A stretch of 61,578 nucleotides of DNA from Veillonella sp. AM51-8BH. Lineage in GTDB: Bacteria > Bacillota > Negativicutes > Veillonellales > Veillonellaceae. The notes below the pieces were generated by a model. It saw only the letters and a list, made by a program, of their open reading frames with translations, searched no databases and had not been told where the DNA came from. The DNA lies in assembly GCF_003463825.1 (NCBI RefSeq), contig NZ_QSDY01000003.1, forward strand, positions 1 through 61,578, read 5' to 3'. The first letter of the stretch is position 1, and each line of letters starts with the position of its first letter. A program made the translations under genes and the position numbers. This document shows, one piece after another, positions 31,889 to 39,697 of the stretch.

Positions 31889-32381
31889 TTAATGATCCAT
31901 TGTAAGTACTACAAATTCAGCATTTACAACAGAGGCCAAATCCTTTGGATTTACCTTCATCTGCATGCCTCGTAGACCAGCGCTTACATATACAAATTCT
32001 TGAGGTTCCATTGTAGCATCAAAATAGGTAGGAAACGATTTTTTCATCCCCACTGGAGAACATCCGCCCCGTAAGTATCCGGTAATACCTAGTAAGTCCT
32101 TAACATGAACCAGTTCTACAGACTTATTATGACTGACACGAGCCGCTTGTTTCATATCTAGCTCTTCAGCCACTGGAATACAGAATACTACAAACCCTGT
32201 TTTATCGCCCTTACCAACTAGTGTTTTAAAGACTTGTTTTTCATCGAGTCCTAAAGCTTCTACTACATGAAGGCCTGCAGCACGCTCTTCAGACCACTCA
32301 TATTCGCTAATACTATAAGGTATCTTATGAGTATCTAAAATACGTAATGCATTTGTTTTTTTATGTTTTCTCTTTACCCAC
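31889..32381 (-). CDS. YbaK/EbsC-type aminoacyl-tRNA deacylase (frameshift at the start)
   Basis: About 164 residues, the usual YbaK size. The intact frame (GLHVVEALGLDEKQVFKTLV, VFCIPVAEELD, KDLLGITGYLRGGCSPVGMKK) is open from before 32370 to 31889 but has no ATG, GTG or TTG until an internal GTG at 32173 that would delete half the domain. A GTG at 32381 with a good GGAGG lies one base out of frame. Removing one G from the GGG at 32377-32379 gives a start reading MVKRKHKKTNALRIL, as in family members. The enzyme hydrolyses Cys-tRNA(Pro). The extra base may be a sequencing error. Confidence 0.78.
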
Positions 32382-32393
32382 TATAACCTCCAT

Positions 32394-32502
32394 ATACTAG
32401 CATAACAAATAAATTTAATCATACCATAATATATTTCTATCGATAAATACTAGCATAACAAATAAATTTAATCATACCATAATATATTTCTATCGATAAA
32501 TA
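32394..32502. repeat. 53-bp tandem duplication (about 2.1 copies)
   Basis: The unit starting TACTAGCATAACAAATAAAT is repeated head to tail with a period of 53 bp and no mismatch, and the match runs three bases past the second unit. It fills the gap between the NdpA-like gene and the YbaK gene. No ORF, hairpin or promoter is obvious in the unit apart from AT-rich stretches. Confidence 0.9.
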
Positions 32503-32514
32503 TATTTTTCATTA

Positions 32515-33513
32515 CTATTTATTTACGATTTTATTAATATTTTTTAGTTCAATACGCAAGGTTCCATCATCATTAGTTTTGATTTCAATGAACTCGCGAT
32601 TTTTCATATACTCTACAGGAAAAGAAATTTCAATGCCCGTATCGGTTTTAATCTTATGATGTTCGCCAACCTTCGTAGCAAACTCTCGATTAACAGGTAG
32701 AGGCCTCATCATATCCGCATCAGCTAATTCTTTCTTAGCCGCCTCTTGTTGAACAGGATTGGCTTTAAATACCTCTTCCACAATGCGAACAGGATCTACT
32801 GTATCAGATACTTCTGCATTTTTCGCAATCATAGACTTTGCAATCGTCAATTCAACGACACCATCTGACTCATGGGCTTGAGCCACCTTATCTACGATAG
32901 CTTTCACCTTTTTCACCGTATCTCTAGAAGATTGGTTAGTGCCTAATTGCAATACCTTATCTGCTAAGATATAGGATACTTCACCATCAAATTCACCTTT
33001 TGGTTCAAAAATTCGAACGCTAAAATCATGCAAATTAATCGATGCAAAGGCGCGTAACTTTTGTGAAGGCATAGGCAACACAGCCTTATGAGAAACAAGT
33101 TCTGTAGCTAAACTGCCATCATCTTCACTAAATAGTTGATGAGTAAAAGCATCATGAGCTTGGCACAGAAGAATGCAGATATAAGATGCATCCGTAACAG
33201 CTTCACAAATAATCGTATCGATAACAACGGAGTCCGTCGCTTGTTTCATATAGGTAAACAAGCTTTCACCTAAATTCTTAGATAACTCTATAAACTTGAG
33301 GTCTCCATTTTTATAATCGACTAATTGTTTACCAAATGGACTTGCATCATGCAAGGTACCTGTTCTAGCACCGGGGTCTTTGAACGCCTTAACTACATGA
33401 TTTGCAATATAATCATGAATAGCTTGATCGCCAACCTTTAATTCATGTTCAGAGTATACAGCTAAAGAAGACGTAAAATCGAAAATCTCTAGCGCCGCCT
33501 TATTAATCTGCAT
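32515..33513 (-). CDS. Nucleoid-associated protein (NdpA/YejK family)
   Basis: A 332-residue protein of the 37-kDa nucleoid-associated family (PF04245). Family-like features include the N-terminal DAIHDYI-type region, the repeated FARTG-like FKDPGARTGTL and the mid-protein IIDTI/AFTHQ stretch. No membrane helices. In E. coli, YejK binds DNA and interacts with topoisomerase IV; the family's general role is poorly understood. The start follows an AGGAGG site. Confidence is moderate because the family is divergent. Confidence 0.72.
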   Translation of the reverse strand: MQINKAALEIFDFTSSLAVYSEHELKVGDQAIHDYIANHVVKAFKDPGARTGTLHDASPFGKQLVDYKNGDLKFIELSKNLGESLFTYMKQATDSVVIDTIICEAVTDASYICILLCQAHDAFTHQLFSEDDGSLATELVSHKAVLPMPSQKLRAFASINLHDFSVRIFEPKGEFDGEVSYILADKVLQLGTNQSSRDTVKKVKAIVDKVAQAHESDGVVELTIAKSMIAKNAEVSDTVDPVRIVEEVFKANPVQQEAAKKELADADMMRPLPVNREFATKVGEHHKIKTDTGIEISFPVEYMKNREFIEIKTNDDGTLRIELKNINKIVNK

Positions 33514-33540
33514 GATGCCTCCTTATAACAGTAAAAACGA

Positions 33541-34836
33541 TTACCCTTTATTATACCACTCTTTTAGCTTTCGTTTATCAACTTTTGAGCATTCTGTAAG
33601 AGGTAACATAGGAATAGAGTAGATGGATTTTGGCCATTCTATGGAAGGTCTATGATGCCGAATTGTTTCCATAACATCGGCGACTAGAACATTATCCTCC
33701 AACACCATATATGCTACAAAATCTTCCCCTTTTACATCATCTATGATATCGATAATAGCTACTTCTGAGACACCATCTATAGATTGCAAATAAGTTTCCA
33801 TGGAGGGAATAGATATTTTATAGCCCCCCTTGTTTACCACATCGCCTTGTCGCCCAGTAAACATAAGATACCCCTGTGTATCTATATAACCACAATCATT
33901 AACGGTATATGTATCGGAAATACCTTCAATATGATATTTTGTAGTTACATATATAACCCCATCATCTGCTTTAATTCGGACCGTTGGGAATGGCCTGCCC
34001 ACAGTGCCTTCTCGGTCTAGCCACTCTTTACCTGTGCAATAGGTTATATAGTTAAGCTCAGAAGCACCATAATACAGAATAAACTCCATATTAGGACATA
34101 GCTGTTGCAACTGCTCCATCAAATGACGATCAAGCACTTGTGAGCCAGCAATAATATAGTTAATCGCAGATAATTTACATTTACAATGCCTTATGAGCAA
34201 TCTAAGTTTTGTAGGAAGAGCATAGATATGATCTACTTCATATCTTTCAAGCAGCTCAATCCATCGAGTAGGACGCAAGGAACTGGTAGTAACAATAGTC
34301 CCCCCTGCCCATAAGACAGCAACAACCATATTACTAACACCAGTAAAACTAAAGCTGCCTTGCAAAAAGATTTTTGTATCTTCATTTATATGAAAGATAT
34401 TATTTTGAATATCAAAAAACTCTCGCCACGATTCCTCTTTTCTCCACAACGGTTTAGGACGCCCCGTAGTACCTGATGTAAGTACACCAAAATCAGTTAA
34501 TGGTAACACGCCTTCATCAGCTATAATATGAGCTAATTCGTCTATATACTCAGTATCCATTTCATTATGGCATACCATAGGAATGTAACATCTATACAAT
34601 GCACCTAACCATTGTACAAGTTGTTCTAAAAAGGATTGACTCTGAATTAAAAGAACTTTATTTTTTAATGTTTCTTTAACTTGAGTAAGATGTACGATAC
34701 CACTAGTATCATCAAGATCTATTGAAAGAATAGCATCATACAATTCACCATATGTATACTGTATATCATCTACAATAAGAGCAACCTTATGAGGCTTTAA
34801 GTCTTTATATTGTCGTAACCGTTCAATAATTGTCAT
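33541..34836 (-). CDS. AMP-forming acyl-CoA ligase (ANL superfamily)
   Basis: A 431-residue adenylate-forming enzyme, short for the superfamily. Visible motifs in order are the P-loop TSGTTGRPKPL, LYYGASELN (A5), the YIDTQGYLMFTGR hinge (A7/A8) and a C-terminal TECSKVDKRKLKEW that holds the catalytic lysine. It should activate a carboxylic acid to an acyl-CoA through an acyl-AMP. It is the last gene of the hot-dog/bioY/thiolase/ligase operon. The B. subtilis genes yhfT (ligase) and yhfS (thiolase) also sit with a bioY and were predicted to be biotin-regulated. Substrate unknown: a dicarboxylate such as pimelate or a fatty acid is plausible. Confidence 0.82.
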   Translation of the reverse strand: MTIIERLRQYKDLKPHKVALIVDDIQYTYGELYDAILSIDLDDTSGIVHLTQVKETLKNKVLLIQSQSFLEQLVQWLGALYRCYIPMVCHNEMDTEYIDELAHIIADEGVLPLTDFGVLTSGTTGRPKPLWRKEESWREFFDIQNNIFHINEDTKIFLQGSFSFTGVSNMVVAVLWAGGTIVTTSSLRPTRWIELLERYEVDHIYALPTKLRLLIRHCKCKLSAINYIIAGSQVLDRHLMEQLQQLCPNMEFILYYGASELNYITYCTGKEWLDREGTVGRPFPTVRIKADDGVIYVTTKYHIEGISDTYTVNDCGYIDTQGYLMFTGRQGDVVNKGGYKISIPSMETYLQSIDGVSEVAIIDIIDDVKGEDFVAYMVLEDNVLVADVMETIRHHRPSIEWPKSIYSIPMLPLTECSKVDKRKLKEWYNKG

Positions 34837-34837
34837 T

Positions 34838-35944
34838 TTACATTCGTTCCATAATCAAAGCAGTTCCTGTACCGCCTGCACCGGCAATAGCACACAAACC
34901 ATAGCGACCATTACAAGATTCTAAAGCAGCCATACAATGAAGAGCTAATATAGCACCAGAACAGCCATAAGGATGTCCATACGCTAAGGCACCACCCAAT
35001 TTATTATATTTTTCTAAATGCTTAGGATAGGCCTTATTGAAGAGAACATCAATGATAGCAAAGGCTTCGTTCCACTCTACTACATCAATATCATCCATCG
35101 TTAGACCAGTGCGTTTTAAAATCGCTTCTGTGCTTTCTAAAGCTCCTTCTGGACTAAACTGAGGATTTCCCGCCCAAGGCATAATACTATGAATTCTAAA
35201 GGGCCCTTTTTCATTAGATACGTATACAAAAGCCGCGCCATCATGAGTTAAACAAGCATTGCCTGCATTTGTAATGGAATTAGGTCCTAATAAAGGCTTC
35301 ATACGTGATAATAGTTTCTCATTCATCTTAGGGCGAATACATTCATCTACACATGCTTTTCCATCGATGGTAATAGGCATAATATAAGATTGCAAATATG
35401 GATTATCTAAGGCCTCAATGGCCCGTTGGTGACTGCCAATAATGTATGGATATAAATCTTCCTTGAGTACATTATGCTTTTGAATCGTCCTCTCTGCCCC
35501 TTCTAACATAGCTAGAGGAGAACAATCGTTAGGGCTAAACTGAGCAACCTTATATAGGCCTTCACGATTATCACCAGCTGCATACATCCTATCGGGCTGT
35601 AATGAAGAACTTTCAATACCACCAGCAATAGCCGAATCCATAACACCTGATGCAATATGTGTATAGGCCATCTCAATACTCATCAAGGCTGATGCACATT
35701 GCATATCTACGGTAATCCCAGGAACAGAATTCGGTAAATTAGTCATGAGCCCCATAAGGCGACCAATATTCCCACCTGTACCAACTGCATTACCACAAAA
35801 GATCCCATCCACTTGTGAAATATCATAACGATTGATTAATTCATTAATGAGTTGAGCTCCTAACATTTCAGGTCTCATATTTCTATATTGTCCATGTAAT
35901 ACGCCTATAGGGATTCTAAGCCCACCATGAATATATACTGACAT
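34838..35944 (-). CDS. Thiolase (acetyl-CoA acetyltransferase family)
   Basis: About 368 residues of the thiolase superfamily. The nucleophile Cys is in VDMQCASALMSIE; other active-site blocks are NEAFAIIDV, GGALAYGHPYGCSGA (His) and CAIAGAGGTGTALIMERM (Cys). The start at 35944 has GGAG upstream; the longer frame to 36001 crosses the terminator hairpin and is unlikely. Thiolases either condense or cleave acyl-CoAs. With a MaoC-like hydratase and an AMP ligase in one biotin-type operon, a chain-extension route to a biotin precursor, or fatty-acid scavenging, is possible; neither is shown. No 3-hydroxyacyl-CoA dehydrogenase gene is nearby. Confidence 0.86.
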   Translation of the reverse strand: MSVYIHGGLRIPIGVLHGQYRNMRPEMLGAQLINELINRYDISQVDGIFCGNAVGTGGNIGRLMGLMTNLPNSVPGITVDMQCASALMSIEMAYTHIASGVMDSAIAGGIESSSLQPDRMYAAGDNREGLYKVAQFSPNDCSPLAMLEGAERTIQKHNVLKEDLYPYIIGSHQRAIEALDNPYLQSYIMPITIDGKACVDECIRPKMNEKLLSRMKPLLGPNSITNAGNACLTHDGAAFVYVSNEKGPFRIHSIMPWAGNPQFSPEGALESTEAILKRTGLTMDDIDVVEWNEAFAIIDVLFNKAYPKHLEKYNKLGGALAYGHPYGCSGAILALHCMAALESCNGRYGLCAIAGAGGTGTALIMERM

Positions 35945-35967
35945 ATTAGCTCCTATAAGAAAATGCA

Positions 35968-35999
35968 GAAAAGAGGCATCCCAAGGAATGCCTCTTTTC
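35968..35999 (-). terminator. Internal terminator between bioY and the thiolase gene
   Basis: Perfect 12-bp inverted repeat (GAAAAGAGGCAT / ATGCCTCTTTTC) with an 8-base loop and a short T-tract on the minus strand. It lies inside the operon, between bioY and the thiolase, and may reduce transcription of the last two genes. Confidence 0.7.
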
Positions 36000-36010
36000 A
36001 TTATTACATT

Positions 36011-36523
36011 CTAAATTTTAATTTTAGTTGCTAACCAAGAAGCAACGAGACATTTTACAATATCCCCAGGAATGAATGGGAACATTACTACAGGCAATGC
36101 CGCCCAAAGTTCAGTTTTTGTTACAATCATAAAGCCTGCAACGCCAAATAGATATACTACAGGAATAGTAATTACAAGAGAACGCCATGCATAAGAGAAA
36201 AAGCTCTTCTTAGAACCTTTGAATACGCTTAATAATGTATAAGCTATTGGCCAAGAGAAGATAAAGCCCCCTGTTGGTCCTAATAATTTGCCAAGACCTG
36301 CTGTGCCACCAACGAATACTGGTAAACCTACAGCACCAAGTAAAACGTAAATGATAAATACAATAAATGCATCCTTTGGTTGCAATAATAGACCTGTTAA
36401 TGTAGCCACCAAAGTCAATGCAGTTACCATAGCCGGACTAAATGGCAATGGGAACGAAATATATGCTGAAATACATAATAAGGCTGTTAATAAAGCCATT
36501 TTTGTTAAACGTCTTGCTTCCAT
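36011..36523 (-). CDS. bioY: Biotin ECF transporter substrate-binding component BioY
   Basis: A 170-residue membrane protein with about six helices and the BioY signatures YISFPLPFSPAMVT near the N-terminus and GGTAGLGKLLGPTGGFIFSWP in the middle (20 residues quoted). BioY binds biotin and works with an ECF module or alone. Gene 2 of the BirA-box operon, 8 bp after the hot-dog gene. Position and operator support a biotin-regulated unit. Confidence 0.93.
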   Translation of the reverse strand: MEARRLTKMALLTALLCISAYISFPLPFSPAMVTALTLVATLTGLLLQPKDAFIVFIIYVLLGAVGLPVFVGGTAGLGKLLGPTGGFIFSWPIAYTLLSVFKGSKKSFFSYAWRSLVITIPVVYLFGVAGFMIVTKTELWAALPVVMFPFIPGDIVKCLVASWLATKIKI

Positions 36524-36531
36524 AATTACCT

Positions 36532-37098
36532 CTAACTAATACATCTTTGTTTTAAAGATGTTAAATCTTCATTTTCACCAAAAAACGTAGCAGAAAATGC
36601 CAATGTGTCACCTACATAACCTTCTACATGAGCATCTTCAGAGTTTTCCACCAAAGTTACCTGATCATCTGCAATAACGGGTGCATGAAAATAAATAGCC
36701 ATCTGCTGTGCAGATTTACTAATATTCCAATAATTCCATAAATTTTCTAAAATCATACAACCAGGCACTACATAGGGCGATTCACGATGAATTTCATTGG
36801 TATCGTTAATATCATTTACAAATCGTATGATATCCTCCTTAGAGAAAGATATCGTCCGATCATTCTCTTCTTCATGAATTATTGAACGAATACGAAATTT
36901 TCTCGGTACCGGTCGTAAATCAACTATTAAAAAACCTGATTTGTCTAGAATACCAATTGTAGTAGTTTTAGCAACTTGATATAAAATGCCACAGATAGAT
37001 TGATCACTACCCGAAGCATCATAATGCATGTGCTTAATAACACTATGCCCTGGTAATCCAAAATCATTATTACACAATGTTGTAAAGAGCGATCTCAT
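36532..37098 (-). CDS. Hot-dog fold protein, MaoC-like hydratase-related
   Basis: A 188-residue soluble protein with no close relative that I can name. The segment at about residues 83-150 has FSKEDIIRFVNDINDTNEIH, then VVPGCMILENLW, and a C-terminal QQMAIYFHAPVIADDQVTL. This resembles the MaoC/(R)-enoyl-CoA hydratase pattern, with the D-x-N-x-x-H arrangement of the hydratase-2 motif. The N-terminal 80 residues are less typical. It is the first gene behind the BirA-like operator and ends 9 bp before bioY, so its product is probably used in the same pathway. A hydratase or thioesterase role is inferred. Confidence 0.55.
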   Translation of the reverse strand: MRSLFTTLCNNDFGLPGHSVIKHMHYDASGSDQSICGILYQVAKTTTIGILDKSGFLIVDLRPVPRKFRIRSIIHEEENDRTISFSKEDIIRFVNDINDTNEIHRESPYVVPGCMILENLWNYWNISKSAQQMAIYFHAPVIADDQVTLVENSEDAHVEGYVGDTLAFSATFFGENEDLTSLKQRCIS

Positions 37099-37131
37099 AT
37101 AATCACAGTCCTTTATTTATTCAATAAATTG

Positions 37132-37188
37132 ATTATAATCAACATTATTTTATTAGTCAACAAAATCACCTTAGTTTTGTTGACAATA
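37132..37188 (-). promoter_or_regulatory. Promoter with overlapping BirA-like operator
   Basis: On the minus strand TTGACT (37160-37155), a 17-base spacer and TATAAT (37137-37132) form a near-consensus promoter about 35 bp before the hot-dog gene. An inverted repeat covers 37151-37188, with arms TATTAGTCAAC and GTTGACAATA separated by 17 bases. This fits the BirA box (TTGTTAAC-N-GTTAACAA) apart from one to two changes per arm, and it overlaps the -35 box. BirA-biotin would block polymerase, so biotin should repress the four-gene operon. Confidence 0.75.
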
Positions 37189-37211
37189 ATACAAAAATAT
37201 CGCCATTAAAT

Positions 37212-37246
37212 AAAAGAACCCATGGTAACATCCACAGGTTCTTTCT
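37212..37246 (-). terminator. Terminator of galU
   Basis: Inverted repeat with arms AAGAACC and GGTTCTT (plus a partial inner stem) and a T-rich stretch on the minus strand, about 20 bp after the galU stop and upstream of the biotin-operon promoter. Confidence 0.65.
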
Positions 37247-37266
37247 TATATACATATATAGCTTCA

Positions 37267-38130
37267 CTATTTAAGGTCTAGTTCTTTCAAATATGCTTTG
37301 AAGTTCTCACCTAACTCTTCATTACGAAGGGCATACTCAACAGTAGCTTTCAAGTAACCTAATTTATCGCCTGTATCGTAACGAATACCTTCATAAGCTA
37401 ATGCATACGTATCGGTTTTAGATGCTGCTAGAGCATCAGTTAATTGAACTTCATTACCTACGCCTGGTTTTGTATTTTCTAAAATATTGAAAATATCTGG
37501 CGTTAAAATGTAACGACCTAATACTGCTAGTCTAGATGGTGCATCTTCTTTTTTTGGTTTTTCCACCAAATTATGAACGCGATATAAATTATCCGCTAAT
37601 GCTTCACCAGATACAATGCCATAAGAGCTAACTTTATCTTCAGGTACAAATTGAGCCCCTAAGATAATACCAGGATGTTCATCGTAACACTCAATTAACT
37701 GTTTAAGGCATGGATTTTCAGGATTATATACAATATCATCACCAAGTAATACAGCAAATGGTTCATCACCAATAAAGGCTTTTGCACATAGTACAGCATC
37801 GCCAAGACCACGAGGAGCTTTTTGACGAATAAAGTGAACTTTAATATCTGCTAAGTCTTTAATCATAGCCAATTGTTTATTTTTACCTTGGCTTTGTAAA
37901 AGCAATTCTAGTTCCACACTGCTATCAAAATGATCTTCAATAGCGCGTTTATTACGGCCTGTAATGATTAGGATCTCTTCAATACCAGAATCTAATGCTT
38001 CTTTTACAATATATTGGATAGCAGGTGTATCCACGATAGGAAGCATTTCCTTTGGTTGTGCTTTAGTAGCTGGTAAGAAGCGTGTACCAAAGCCAGCTGC
38101 TGGAATAACGGCTTTTCTAATACGTTGCAT
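37267..38130 (-). CDS. galU: UTP--glucose-1-phosphate uridylyltransferase
   Basis: A 287-residue nucleotidyltransferase making UDP-glucose. It shows the N-terminal signature AVIPAAGFGTRFLPATKAQ, KEMLPIVDTPAIQYIVKEA, the substrate loop VLLGDDIV and the late VEKP and GNEVQLTDAL blocks. UDP-glucose is the common precursor for ugd and galE in this window. The stop is followed by a terminator; the LptD-like gene is 14 bp upstream. Confidence 0.95.
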   Translation of the reverse strand: MQRIRKAVIPAAGFGTRFLPATKAQPKEMLPIVDTPAIQYIVKEALDSGIEEILIITGRNKRAIEDHFDSSVELELLLQSQGKNKQLAMIKDLADIKVHFIRQKAPRGLGDAVLCAKAFIGDEPFAVLLGDDIVYNPENPCLKQLIECYDEHPGIILGAQFVPEDKVSSYGIVSGEALADNLYRVHNLVEKPKKEDAPSRLAVLGRYILTPDIFNILENTKPGVGNEVQLTDALAASKTDTYALAYEGIRYDTGDKLGYLKATVEYALRNEELGENFKAYLKELDLK

Positions 38131-38143
38131 AGTTATCTCCTAA

Positions 38144-39697
38144 TTAAAAGTCTTTGCCAACAAATTTGATTTTCCATTGATCATTATTGCTTCTATGTGC
38201 ATCCTTATAAGTTAAGTACAAGTCAAAGGAATGTAAATCACGATGCCATGTATAATATACAGAGTCTATCTGACCACTCATCATATTTGTTTTAACACTT
38301 ACAGACACATCATCTAAGCGAGTCAATTTATAGTTACCGCCATAGATGAGCTCTTTAGGAAGCTCTGTAGTATCAAATCGATATGGAGAGTTATTATAAG
38401 AAATATTACGTTGATTATAGCTAACCCATACATTAGCACGATTTCCCACTTTAGAGCGGAATCTAGCGCCCCAGTAAGGCATGCTACGAATCGTGCCATC
38501 GTAACCATAGTAGTCGCGTTGGTAACCGCCCAAGAAGCGTAAATCAGCATTTTTACCAAGCTTAATTGGATCATGAGATATTTCTGTATAGTATTCCTTA
38601 TGGGAACCTTTTACAGAACCTTCTTTCCAATAACCGGCATTAACGCCACCGCGTACAGTTACTGGTGATTTACCCACATGATACGTATGAGTATCTAAAC
38701 GTGCCTCACCAATCTTTTCAACCCATACCGTTTCATCATTATATTCATTAGATTCTTTACTGTACCCAATTGACGCAGTAGCCCAAGGCAAGTAGTGTCT
38801 ATAACCAACTTTTGGTTTAAAGCCTGATTTTGAATACCAGCGATAATCGATATAAGCTTCACCATGCTTACCAATTGGATAATCAGTACTACCATGCAAG
38901 CCAAGTCCATCATCACTACTATATGTAGGCTTTGGAACTAATGAGAATATACTGAATTTTCCTTCTTTATCATGGCGCAAGGATGCTGTATAAGAAGGTA
39001 AAGATAAAACCTTAAAGTTTTTAATGTAGAAAGACGGTTTTTTAATAATGACTTTATCGCCAGGATACACCTTGATATCTTGACCTTCTACACGATAATC
39101 TGGTGTATGTTTAAAGGCCATCGCATGTTTTGTGGTAACCATGCCTTTATCCATATGACCAGTTTCACCATCAAATGTAGCATTTTGCCCCTTCACATAG
39201 TAAGGATCATTCCAACCAAACGCTTGGTCAGCTGTAAAATGACGGTCACTAGTCCGATATGTCATATTTTGACCTGTAATATCCTTTGTTTTACCGCCAT
39301 TTTCCAAAAAGCGATACCCACCAACAGTACGGTATTCTGTAGTTTTTGTATTACCTTCTATACGTGGTGCCATCAAGGTTTGATTACCTTGAGTCACTAC
39401 TACATCACCTTGTGCATATACATCACCAGTGGACCCAGTATAGGACATTTTATCTGCATCAATACGAGTCGGCAATTGTTCTGTAGGTTGATCAGACTTT
39501 GCCTTTTCACCACGACGTACAACACGGATATTACTATTTTCAGGTGTAGATGCTTTAGAGATTTCTCCAAGATAGGATTGATCAACGCTATCCAATTGAT
39601 CTTGATATACCGTGGTTGACTCCGTAGCGGCCCATACTGGTTGTGCTAAACAAAAAACACAAGCCGCTGCCAGCCATTGTACTTTACGTTTCCTCAT
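38144..39697 (-). CDS. LptD/OstA-like outer-membrane protein
   Basis: A 517-residue exported protein with a signal peptide (cleavage near VWAATE). An OstA/LptA-like beta-jellyroll domain (about 75-180) has IDADKMSYTGSTGDVYAQGD, VVVTQGNQTLMAPRIEGN and FTADQAFGW. A C-terminal beta-strand-rich region (about 250-517) has alternating aromatic residues and ends in a final Phe (VGKDF), as outer-membrane barrels do. The C-terminal region is much shorter than the barrel of E. coli LptD (784 residues in total). It may be a reduced LptD or a related paralogue. The neighbour galU and two exported proteins suggest an envelope role. Confidence 0.72.
   Translation of the reverse strand: MRKRKVQWLAAACVFCLAQPVWAATESTTVYQDQLDSVDQSYLGEISKASTPENSNIRVVRRGEKAKSDQPTEQLPTRIDADKMSYTGSTGDVYAQGDVVVTQGNQTLMAPRIEGNTKTTEYRTVGGYRFLENGGKTKDITGQNMTYRTSDRHFTADQAFGWNDPYYVKGQNATFDGETGHMDKGMVTTKHAMAFKHTPDYRVEGQDIKVYPGDKVIIKKPSFYIKNFKVLSLPSYTASLRHDKEGKFSIFSLVPKPTYSSDDGLGLHGSTDYPIGKHGEAYIDYRWYSKSGFKPKVGYRHYLPWATASIGYSKESNEYNDETVWVEKIGEARLDTHTYHVGKSPVTVRGGVNAGYWKEGSVKGSHKEYYTEISHDPIKLGKNADLRFLGGYQRDYYGYDGTIRSMPYWGARFRSKVGNRANVWVSYNQRNISYNNSPYRFDTTELPKELIYGGNYKLTRLDDVSVSVKTNMMSGQIDSVYYTWHRDLHSFDLYLTYKDAHRSNNDQWKIKFVGKDF

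What the first reader, a model, noticed from the sequence alone, without database searches (positions are those of the whole stretch)
36011..37188. BirA-type operator controls a hot-dog/BioY/thiolase/AMP-ligase operon (33541-37188)
The sequence shows a near-consensus promoter (TTGACT-17-TATAAT) overlapped by an inverted repeat TATTAGTCAAC-17-GTTGACAATA that resembles the BirA box, directly before four genes: a MaoC-like hot-dog protein, bioY, a thiolase and an AMP-forming ligase. In B. subtilis, yhfU (bioY), yhfS (thiolase) and yhfT (ligase) were predicted to be biotin-regulated, so the last three are an established set; the hot-dog gene as first gene is the additional element. The set has the parts of a reverse-beta-oxidation-like loop (condense, dehydrate, activate) that could make a pimeloyl-type precursor. 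An alternative is scavenging of exogenous acids when biotin-dependent acetyl-CoA carboxylase is limiting. Either would be a little-studied use of biotin regulation.
Basis: partly seen in the sequence, partly recalled or inferred. Interest (0 to 1): 0.75.

Follow-up and report, generated by a model that had tools for sequence, protein, structure and literature searches.

The report
Biotin-controlled acyl-chain elongation gene set
In Veillonella-like bacteria a biotin-shortage switch sits before a biotin importer gene and three enzyme genes that look like a small carbon-chain building kit; relatives that lack key biotin-making genes keep the kit, so its job is probably not the biotin-precursor synthesis first proposed.

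Summary
A BirA-type operator (37151-37188) overlaps a TTGACT-17-TATAAT promoter before hot-dog, bioY, thiolase and AMP-ligase genes. The box plus a -10 recurs before this operon or bioY in 37 of 38 genomes examined; boxes also precede bioB in 26 genomes and bioW-bioF in 8 of 9 loci. The hot-dog gene adjoins bioY in 35 of 35 Veillonellales loci read and models as a short MaoC-type double hot-dog dehydratase.

New: (1) the thiolase homologue keeps Cys83, Asn292 and His324, but its base cysteine (Z. ramigera Cys378) is Ala, Gly or Pro in every bioY-linked member read; a tree splits these from Cys-bearing thiolases on one branch. (2) Two relatives carry a FabZ-like gene instead of the hot-dog gene; one adds FabG-like, FabK-like and ECF genes. 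(3) Thiolase+ligase occur without bioF/bioW in 7 of 30 carriers and are missing from 13 of 36 bioF/bioW genomes.

I read it as a BirA-controlled two-carbon elongation module tied to BioY. The pimelate idea is weakened; the substrate is unproven. BirA control of yhfS-yhfT and bioY is already known.

The parts
37151..37188 (-). BirA-type operator: inverted repeat TATTGTCAAC-17-GTTGACTAATA
   Evidence: exact match, 0 of 100 shuffles; same box type before the bioY operon in 37 of 38 genomes
37132..37160 (-). promoter TTGACT-17-TATAAT; its -35 lies inside the right half of the operator
   Evidence: 11 of 12; -10 at 17 or 18 nt in 37 of 37 boxed upstreams
36532..37098 (-). hot-dog protein, 188 aa: short MaoC-type double hot-dog, likely 3-hydroxyacyl-thioester dehydratase / R-enoyl hydratase
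36787..36804 (-). codons of D99-T-N101-E-I-H104, the hydratase-2-like motif (motif recalled)
   Evidence: D 32 of 32, N 32 of 32, H 28 of 32 aligned proteins, Tyr in 4
36011..36523 (-). bioY, S component for biotin uptake
   Evidence: PF02632 E 4e-34, 118 bits against cut-off 25
35968..35999 (-). terminator-like hairpin between bioY and the thiolase gene, 14-bp stem
   Evidence: conserved with both-sided changes in 4 of 14 pairs over 8 sequences
34838..35944 (-). thiolase homologue (YhfS-like), 368 aa
   Evidence: TIGR01930 293 bits, cut-off 240.55; PRK06690 second best, below cut-off
35696..35698 (-). codon of nucleophile Cys83 of the thiolase homologue
   Evidence: C in 22 of 22 order sequences that reach it
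34883..34885 (-). codon of Ala354, where true thiolases have the base cysteine (Z. ramigera Cys378)
   Evidence: A 17, P 5, G 1 of 23 order sequences, no Cys; alignment to PDB 8gqh
33541..34836 (-). AMP-forming acyl ligase (YhfT-like), 431 aa, short N-terminal part
   Evidence: PF00501 E 1.4e-22 and PF13193 E 5.8e-8; best NCBIfam model PRK07638, below cut-off; P-loop-like TSGTTGRPK at residue 120

Best explanation
A BirA-repressed unit, turned on when biotin is short, that couples a BioY importer to a small two-carbon acyl-elongation module. (a) BioY takes up its ligand. (b) The AMP ligase turns a carboxylic acid into an acyl thioester. (c) The thiolase-fold enzyme takes the acyl group on Cys83 and joins a two-carbon unit, most likely by decarboxylating a malonyl thioester, because the cysteine that deprotonates acetyl-CoA in true thiolases is missing. 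(d) A 3-oxo reductase from elsewhere in the cell (FabG) acts. (e) The MaoC-like hot-dog protein dehydrates. (f) An enoyl reductase from elsewhere finishes. Because the set stays beside bioY, and is kept without bioF/bioW and in one genome also without bioB, the substrate is more likely a biotin-related acid (vitamer) than a pimelate precursor. Shown by sequence: operator, promoter, gene set, enzyme families, missing base cysteine, conservation, distribution. Inferred: BirA binding, the reactions and their direction, the partners, the substrate.
For: Operator and promoter; a BirA-type HTH at E <= 1e-3 in 61 of 61 genomes. Thiolase and ligase occur in the same 30 of 61 genomes, and the hot-dog gene in 28 of those 30. 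Hot-dog fold. In 4 of 4 g12 proteins read (genomes without thiolase) the motif His is Tyr. FabA/FabZ-domain ORF after the ligase in two loci that lack the hot-dog gene. G083: ligase, Cys-less thiolase, two MaoC-type ORFs, FabG-like, FabK-like and ECF genes in a row. Base cysteine missing in 23 of 23 order sequences, in 120 of the best 120 YhfS-like hits and in 3 of 3 bioY-linked ones among 80 named loci; one branch, SH-aLRT 99. Persistence without bioF/bioW.
Against: No substrate, binding or expression data. bioF and thiolase are positively associated in the order (Fisher p 0.009, not corrected for descent). All nucleotide-level regulon evidence rests on pattern matches; genome-wide the pattern gives 86 hits against 41 for the reversed control. 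In L255 and L256 the box lies between the hot-dog gene and bioY, so there it would not control the hot-dog gene. G048 has thiolase-ligase away from bioY without a box found in 260 nt upstream. G005 and L253 lack the hot-dog gene; G043 keeps it without thiolase or ligase. Bacillus-type loci L165 and L221 showed no hot-dog gene. The FabA-domain hits are below Pfam's cut-off. G083 has no box, bioY, bioB or bioF found. In G005 the only BioY found lies in this set, so that BioY presumably carries biotin itself.
Confidence: 0.45

Rival explanations
1. Pimeloyl synthesis: the module extends glutarate or a similar acid by two carbons to a pimeloyl thioester for BioF, a BioZ-like route.
For: Same operator type as bioB, bioD-bioA and bioW-bioF; positive association with bioF in the order (23 of 30 carriers); BioZ makes pimeloyl-ACP from glutaryl-CoA (PMC7645780, abstract); the source of pimelate is called unknown (PMC11089781, passage).
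Against: 7 of 30 carriers have no bioF/bioW, 13 of 36 bioF/bioW genomes have no thiolase+ligase; of 9 further carriers 2 pass the bioF cut-off and 1 has hits below it; G005 has no bioB. bioW and a putative S component in front of it suggest that Veillonellaceae can use ready-made pimelate.
Confidence: 0.15
2. Biotin sparing: when biotin is short and acetyl-CoA carboxylase slows, the ligase and its partners take in or rework outside fatty or other acids.
For: The ligase resembles fatty-acid ligases; S. [quoted passage not shown] persistence in a genome without bioB fits.
Against: Does not explain the constant link to bioY or the missing base cysteine; a malonyl-using condensing enzyme would itself need the carboxylase.
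Confidence: 0.2
3. A degradative unit: beta-oxidation of an acid (for example of biotin-like side chains or longer diacids) in which the hot-dog protein is the hydratase and the thiolase cleaves.
For: Ligase plus hydratase plus thiolase is the usual kit (recalled); several nearest folds are enoyl-CoA hydratases.
Against: No acyl-CoA dehydrogenase was noticed among the ORFs read in these clusters (not searched with a model); base cysteine missing; FabZ-, FabG- and FabK-like partners point to synthesis.
Confidence: 0.1

Closest known systems
BirA-regulated yhfS-yhfT and bioY of S. aureus and B. subtilis (PMC6391492, PMC7235819, PMC11089781; passages)
   Same: bioY, a YhfS-type thiolase homologue and a YhfT-type ligase under BirA; the bioY-linked Cytobacillus thiolase also lacks the base cysteine
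   Different: The passages seen describe no dehydratase gene in the set and do not mention the missing cysteine; here a MaoC-like gene is a regular member
BioZ pathway of alpha-proteobacteria (PMC7645780, abstract)
   Same: A dedicated condensing enzyme adds two carbons to a short acyl-CoA in biotin metabolism
   Different: BioZ is 3-ketoacyl-ACP synthase III-like and serves pimeloyl-ACP; here a thiolase-type protein that is often found without bioF
HtdX and other MaoC-type (3R)-hydroxyacyl dehydratases / enoyl-CoA hydratase 2
   Different: 188 aa against 233-245 in the HtdX models; about 10% identity; no Pfam match for the window protein
Thiolase-like protein TLP1 of M. smegmatis (PMC3406046, passages)
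   Same: Thiolase family without the CxG base cysteine
   Different: TLP1 has lost the CxS, NEAF and GHP fingerprints too; here Cys83, Asn292 and His324 stay

Membership tests
BirA regulon | BirA-type inverted repeat overlapping the promoter | tested here: met
   in the window; 37 of 38 genomes, shuffled upstreams 0.03%
BirA regulon | a BirA with an N-terminal DNA-binding domain in the genome | tested here: met
   TIGR00122 in 61 of 61 relatives at E <= 1e-3, 0 over the curated cut-off, G030 only weakly; the window's own assembly is not held
BirA regulon | biotin-dependent binding and repression | not testable with these tools
   needs gel shift and expression data
MaoC-like dehydratase / enoyl-CoA hydratase 2 | double hot-dog fold | tested here: met
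MaoC-like dehydratase / enoyl-CoA hydratase 2 | Asp-His catalytic motif (D-x-N-x-x-H; recalled) | tested here: met
   window has D99, N101, H104; H in 28 of 32 relatives
MaoC-like dehydratase / enoyl-CoA hydratase 2 | match over the Pfam cut-off | tested here: not met
   no match for the window protein; the relative L257 reaches 26.5 of 27 bits
thiolase (acetyl-CoA acyltransferase) | sequence family | tested here: met
   TIGR01930 293 bits, cut-off 240.55
thiolase (acetyl-CoA acyltransferase) | base cysteine of the CxG motif | tested here: not met
   Ala354 in the window; no Cys in 23 of 23 order sequences
YhfS (PRK06690) / YhfT (PRK07638) | score over the NCBIfam cut-offs | tested here: not met
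   window proteins 204 of 498 and 151 of 518 bits; the Cytobacillus pair passes both; profile alignment of the two thiolase groups E 4e-59
pimelate-forming pathway | occurs with bioF, the user of pimeloyl thioesters | tested here: not met
   7 of 30 carriers in the order lack bioF; not excluded inside Veillonella itself

The most novel reading that the evidence does not exclude
A vitamer-repair pathway: bacteria short of biotin import side-chain-shortened biotins (such as bisnorbiotin) through BioY and rebuild the side chain by two carbons with the ligase, a decarboxylating thiolase-fold condensing enzyme, FabG, the MaoC-like (or FabZ-like) dehydratase and an enoyl reductase, giving biotin without de novo synthesis. 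This would explain the tie to BioY and BirA, the independence from bioF/bioW/bioB, and the missing base cysteine.
Probability: 0.18. Interest if true: 0.85.

Novelty: new variant of a known kind. Interest (0 to 1): 0.55.

Why it matters
The papers seen here list the biotin-repressed yhfS/yhfT genes only as putative homologues of a thiolase and a ligase, without a role. The findings narrow it: the thiolase homologue has lost its base cysteine throughout the bioY-linked members read, a dehydratase (MaoC- or FabZ-like) belongs to the set in many lineages, the set follows bioY rather than the biotin-making genes, and one relative carries a nearly complete elongation cycle next to ECF transporter genes. 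That turns an old loose end into two simple assays: which acid does the ligase activate, and does the condensing enzyme use malonyl thioesters? If the vitamer reading is right, it is a new way to obtain a vitamin.

Tried and rejected
Rejected or weakened: pimelate synthesis as the general role; ordinary reverse beta-oxidation (missing base cysteine); the hot-dog gene as a chance neighbour (35 of 35 loci). I first labelled the Cys378-equivalent as residue 355 (note, script); it is Ala354 (corrected).

Led nowhere: the protein search with the hot-dog alignment gave 43 hits; the few that carry names are Veillonella or have no family name. Rodionov 2002 is not held. Paper searches for bisnorbiotin (8 papers) and biotin analogues (1 paper) listed no title on bacterial re-extension of shortened biotin; I looked into passages of two of the eight. 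PMC11203980 says that catabolism of biotin to bisnorbiotin in humans is limited (passage), which speaks against a large supply.

Limits and rows dropped: thiolase carriers are the 30 genomes with identity of 42% or more; 16 others matched at 35% or less and were counted as other thiolases without reading their active sites. Ligase: 30 at E <= 1e-54; six g12 genomes with E 1e-12 to 1e-15 were not counted. bioF: 38 genomes at 1e-60; G029 and G030 (233-238 bits) left out. bioW: 37 genomes; the G014 fragment left out. The upstream count covers 38 of 61 genomes, those whose locus I had read; G013 is broken by contig ends and not included. One search kept 80 of 588 relatives; one search listed 120 of 3326; the phylum search used E <= 1e-85 (10 of 348 genomes) and is no survey. 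The tree used 30 of the 76 Cys-bearing rows and the quick method. The hairpin alignment left out one sequence identical to the window (L032); a ninth Veillonella gap (L040) shows no such hairpin. In the pair count the measure 'further pair types' did not exceed shuffles (439 of 500). The DNA pair counts used a hand-made set of 8.

Full report
WHAT IS THERE. On the minus strand of 33541-37188 lie a promoter with an inverted repeat and four genes. The repeat TATTGTCAAC-17-GTTGACTAATA at 37151-37188 occurs once in the window with up to 3 mismatches; 0 of 100 shuffles gave a match. Its right half contains the -35 of TTGACT-17-TATAAT, the best of 17 promoter-like sites in 32000-38200, a stretch with fewer such sites than its shuffles. 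The genes are a 188-aa protein without Pfam or NCBIfam match at E <= 1, bioY (PF02632, E 4e-34), a thiolase homologue (TIGR01930, 293 bits, cut-off 240.55) and an AMP-binding ligase. The thiolase is best started at 35944.

THE OPERATOR. The window's own assembly is not held; relatives were searched round G001, the nearest genome held. Upstream regions of the hot-dog/bioY unit were taken from 38 of the 61 genomes of the order: 37 have GTNAAC-N13..18-GTTGAC, each with a -10 at 17 or 18 nt (TATAAT in 36, TATACT in G035); G005 has none. Mononucleotide-shuffled upstreams gave 0.03%. Genome-wide, TTGTNAACN{15,17}GTTRAC has 86 hits in 35 of 61 genomes against 41 hits in 27 genomes for the reversed control (palindromic sites count twice), so single hits mean little by themselves; but in 26 genomes a hit lies 107-232 nt before bioB, and boxes lie before a bioD-bioA pair and within 150 nt of the gene in front of bioW in 8 of 9 loci. 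A BirA-type HTH is found in 61 of 61 genomes, never over the curated cut-off and only weakly in G030.

OTHER DEHYDRATASES AND A FULLER SET. In L163 (Ca. Avacidaminococcus: bioY-thiolase-ligase) and L259 (thiolase-ligase) no hot-dog gene of this family was seen, but an ORF after the ligase matches the FabA/FabZ domain (E 4e-4 and 5e-3, both below the cut-off). In G083 the ligase and a Cys-less thiolase are followed by a FAS1_DH-like ORF, a MaoC-domain ORF (E 1e-16), a FabG-like SDR, two ABC ATPase-like ORFs (one scanned), a CbiQ/EcfT protein and a FabK-like enzyme (TIGR03151, 278 of 453 bits). No bioB or bioF at 1e-60 was found there, and no box or bioY near the set, so its tie to biotin is open.

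THE THIOLASE HOMOLOGUE. In Z. ramigera thiolase Cys378 is the base (PMC3406046, passages). Aligned with PDB 8gqh, that cysteine falls on Ala354 of the window protein. Of 23 order sequences none has Cys there (A 17, P 5, G 1), while Cys83 is kept in 22 of 22, Asn292 and His324 in 23 of 23. The best 120 hits of the bioY-linked Cytobacillus protein all have Gly there and keep the other three; two of them are named YhfS. Of 80 named loci, the three with bioY lack the cysteine, L162 lacks it without bioY, and 76 have it with no bioY found. On a tree built without the columns round the site, 34 Cys-less and 30 Cys-bearing rows are split by one branch (SH-aLRT 99). Cys231 and Tyr326 are among the residues typical of the Cys-less rows.

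WHAT IT IS NOT TIED TO. Thiolase and ligase occur in the same 30 of 61 genomes, bioF and bioW in the same 36 (exclusions under Tried and rejected). Both 23; thiolase only 7 (G005, G013, G027, G031-G034); bioF/bioW only 13; neither 18; Fisher p 0.009 for a positive association, not corrected for descent. G013 is only 75% complete. G005 (99% complete) has bioY-thiolase-ligase and no bioB, bioF or bioW. Of nine further carriers two pass the bioF cut-off, one has weaker hits, six have none; eight have bioB. BioY is found in 59 of 61 genomes, often twice; in G005, G027, G033 and G034 the only BioY found is the one in this set. So the set follows bioY and does not need the enzymes that use pimeloyl thioesters.

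THE INTERNAL HAIRPIN. Between bioY and the thiolase gene a 14-bp stem (35999-35968) is shared by the window and seven relatives: 94.4% of cells pair, 4 pairs change on both sides, 0 of 500 shuffles reach either, slid controls are lower, but the number of pair types is not above shuffles (439 of 500). L040 lacks such a stem; f4 loci have almost no gap. It may lower thiolase and ligase expression relative to bioY.

COMPARISON. S. aureus BirA binds and represses the bioY and yhfS-yhfT promoters (PMC6391492, passages; PMC7235819, passage). So biotin control of this kind of set is known; the regular dehydratase, the missing base cysteine, the independence from bioF/bioW and the elongation reading are what is added. 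The literature searches behind this were made, over an open-access library only. PMC6593275 reads incomplete biotin pathways as salvage of dethiobiotin, DAPA or KAPA (passages); side-chain repair is not mentioned in the passages seen.

VERDICT. Observation confirmed; regulation reading supported; pimelate reading weakened; best reading a BirA-controlled acyl-elongation module tied to BioY (0.45), with biotin-vitamer repair as the boldest form (0.18).

Noticed in passing
L122:5636-6136 and 9 further loci (alignment A4): A ~165-aa membrane protein without Pfam or NCBIfam match for the member scanned stands in front of bioW-bioF, with BirA-type boxes in 8 of 9 loci checked. Its AlphaFold2 model (pLDDT 79.2) has 19 ECF S-component chains as its first 19 Foldseek matches, BioY 4dve first (E 2.5e-3, TM 0.69; none at E <= 0.001): a candidate pimelate or precursor importer.
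   Followed up: partly
window 32515-33513: A 332-aa ORF without a Pfam match over cut-off follows the ligase in Veillonella and stays in place in G043 and G054, where thiolase and ligase are missing, so it is probably not part of the set.
   Followed up: partly
L069:7457-10715 (G004) and G007, G009: Three bioB copies per genome, all over the family cut-off, lying close together.
   Followed up: no
G031-G034, G027 and most genomes of family f3: bioB is present although bioF and bioW were not found; this fits salvage of late biotin intermediates. G032 also has a bioA-bioD pair with a box nearby.
   Followed up: partly
L146:1852-2430 and second PF02632 matches: Many Veillonellaceae genomes hold two BioY homologues; in G042 one lies beside bioD with a BirA-type box.
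   Followed up: no
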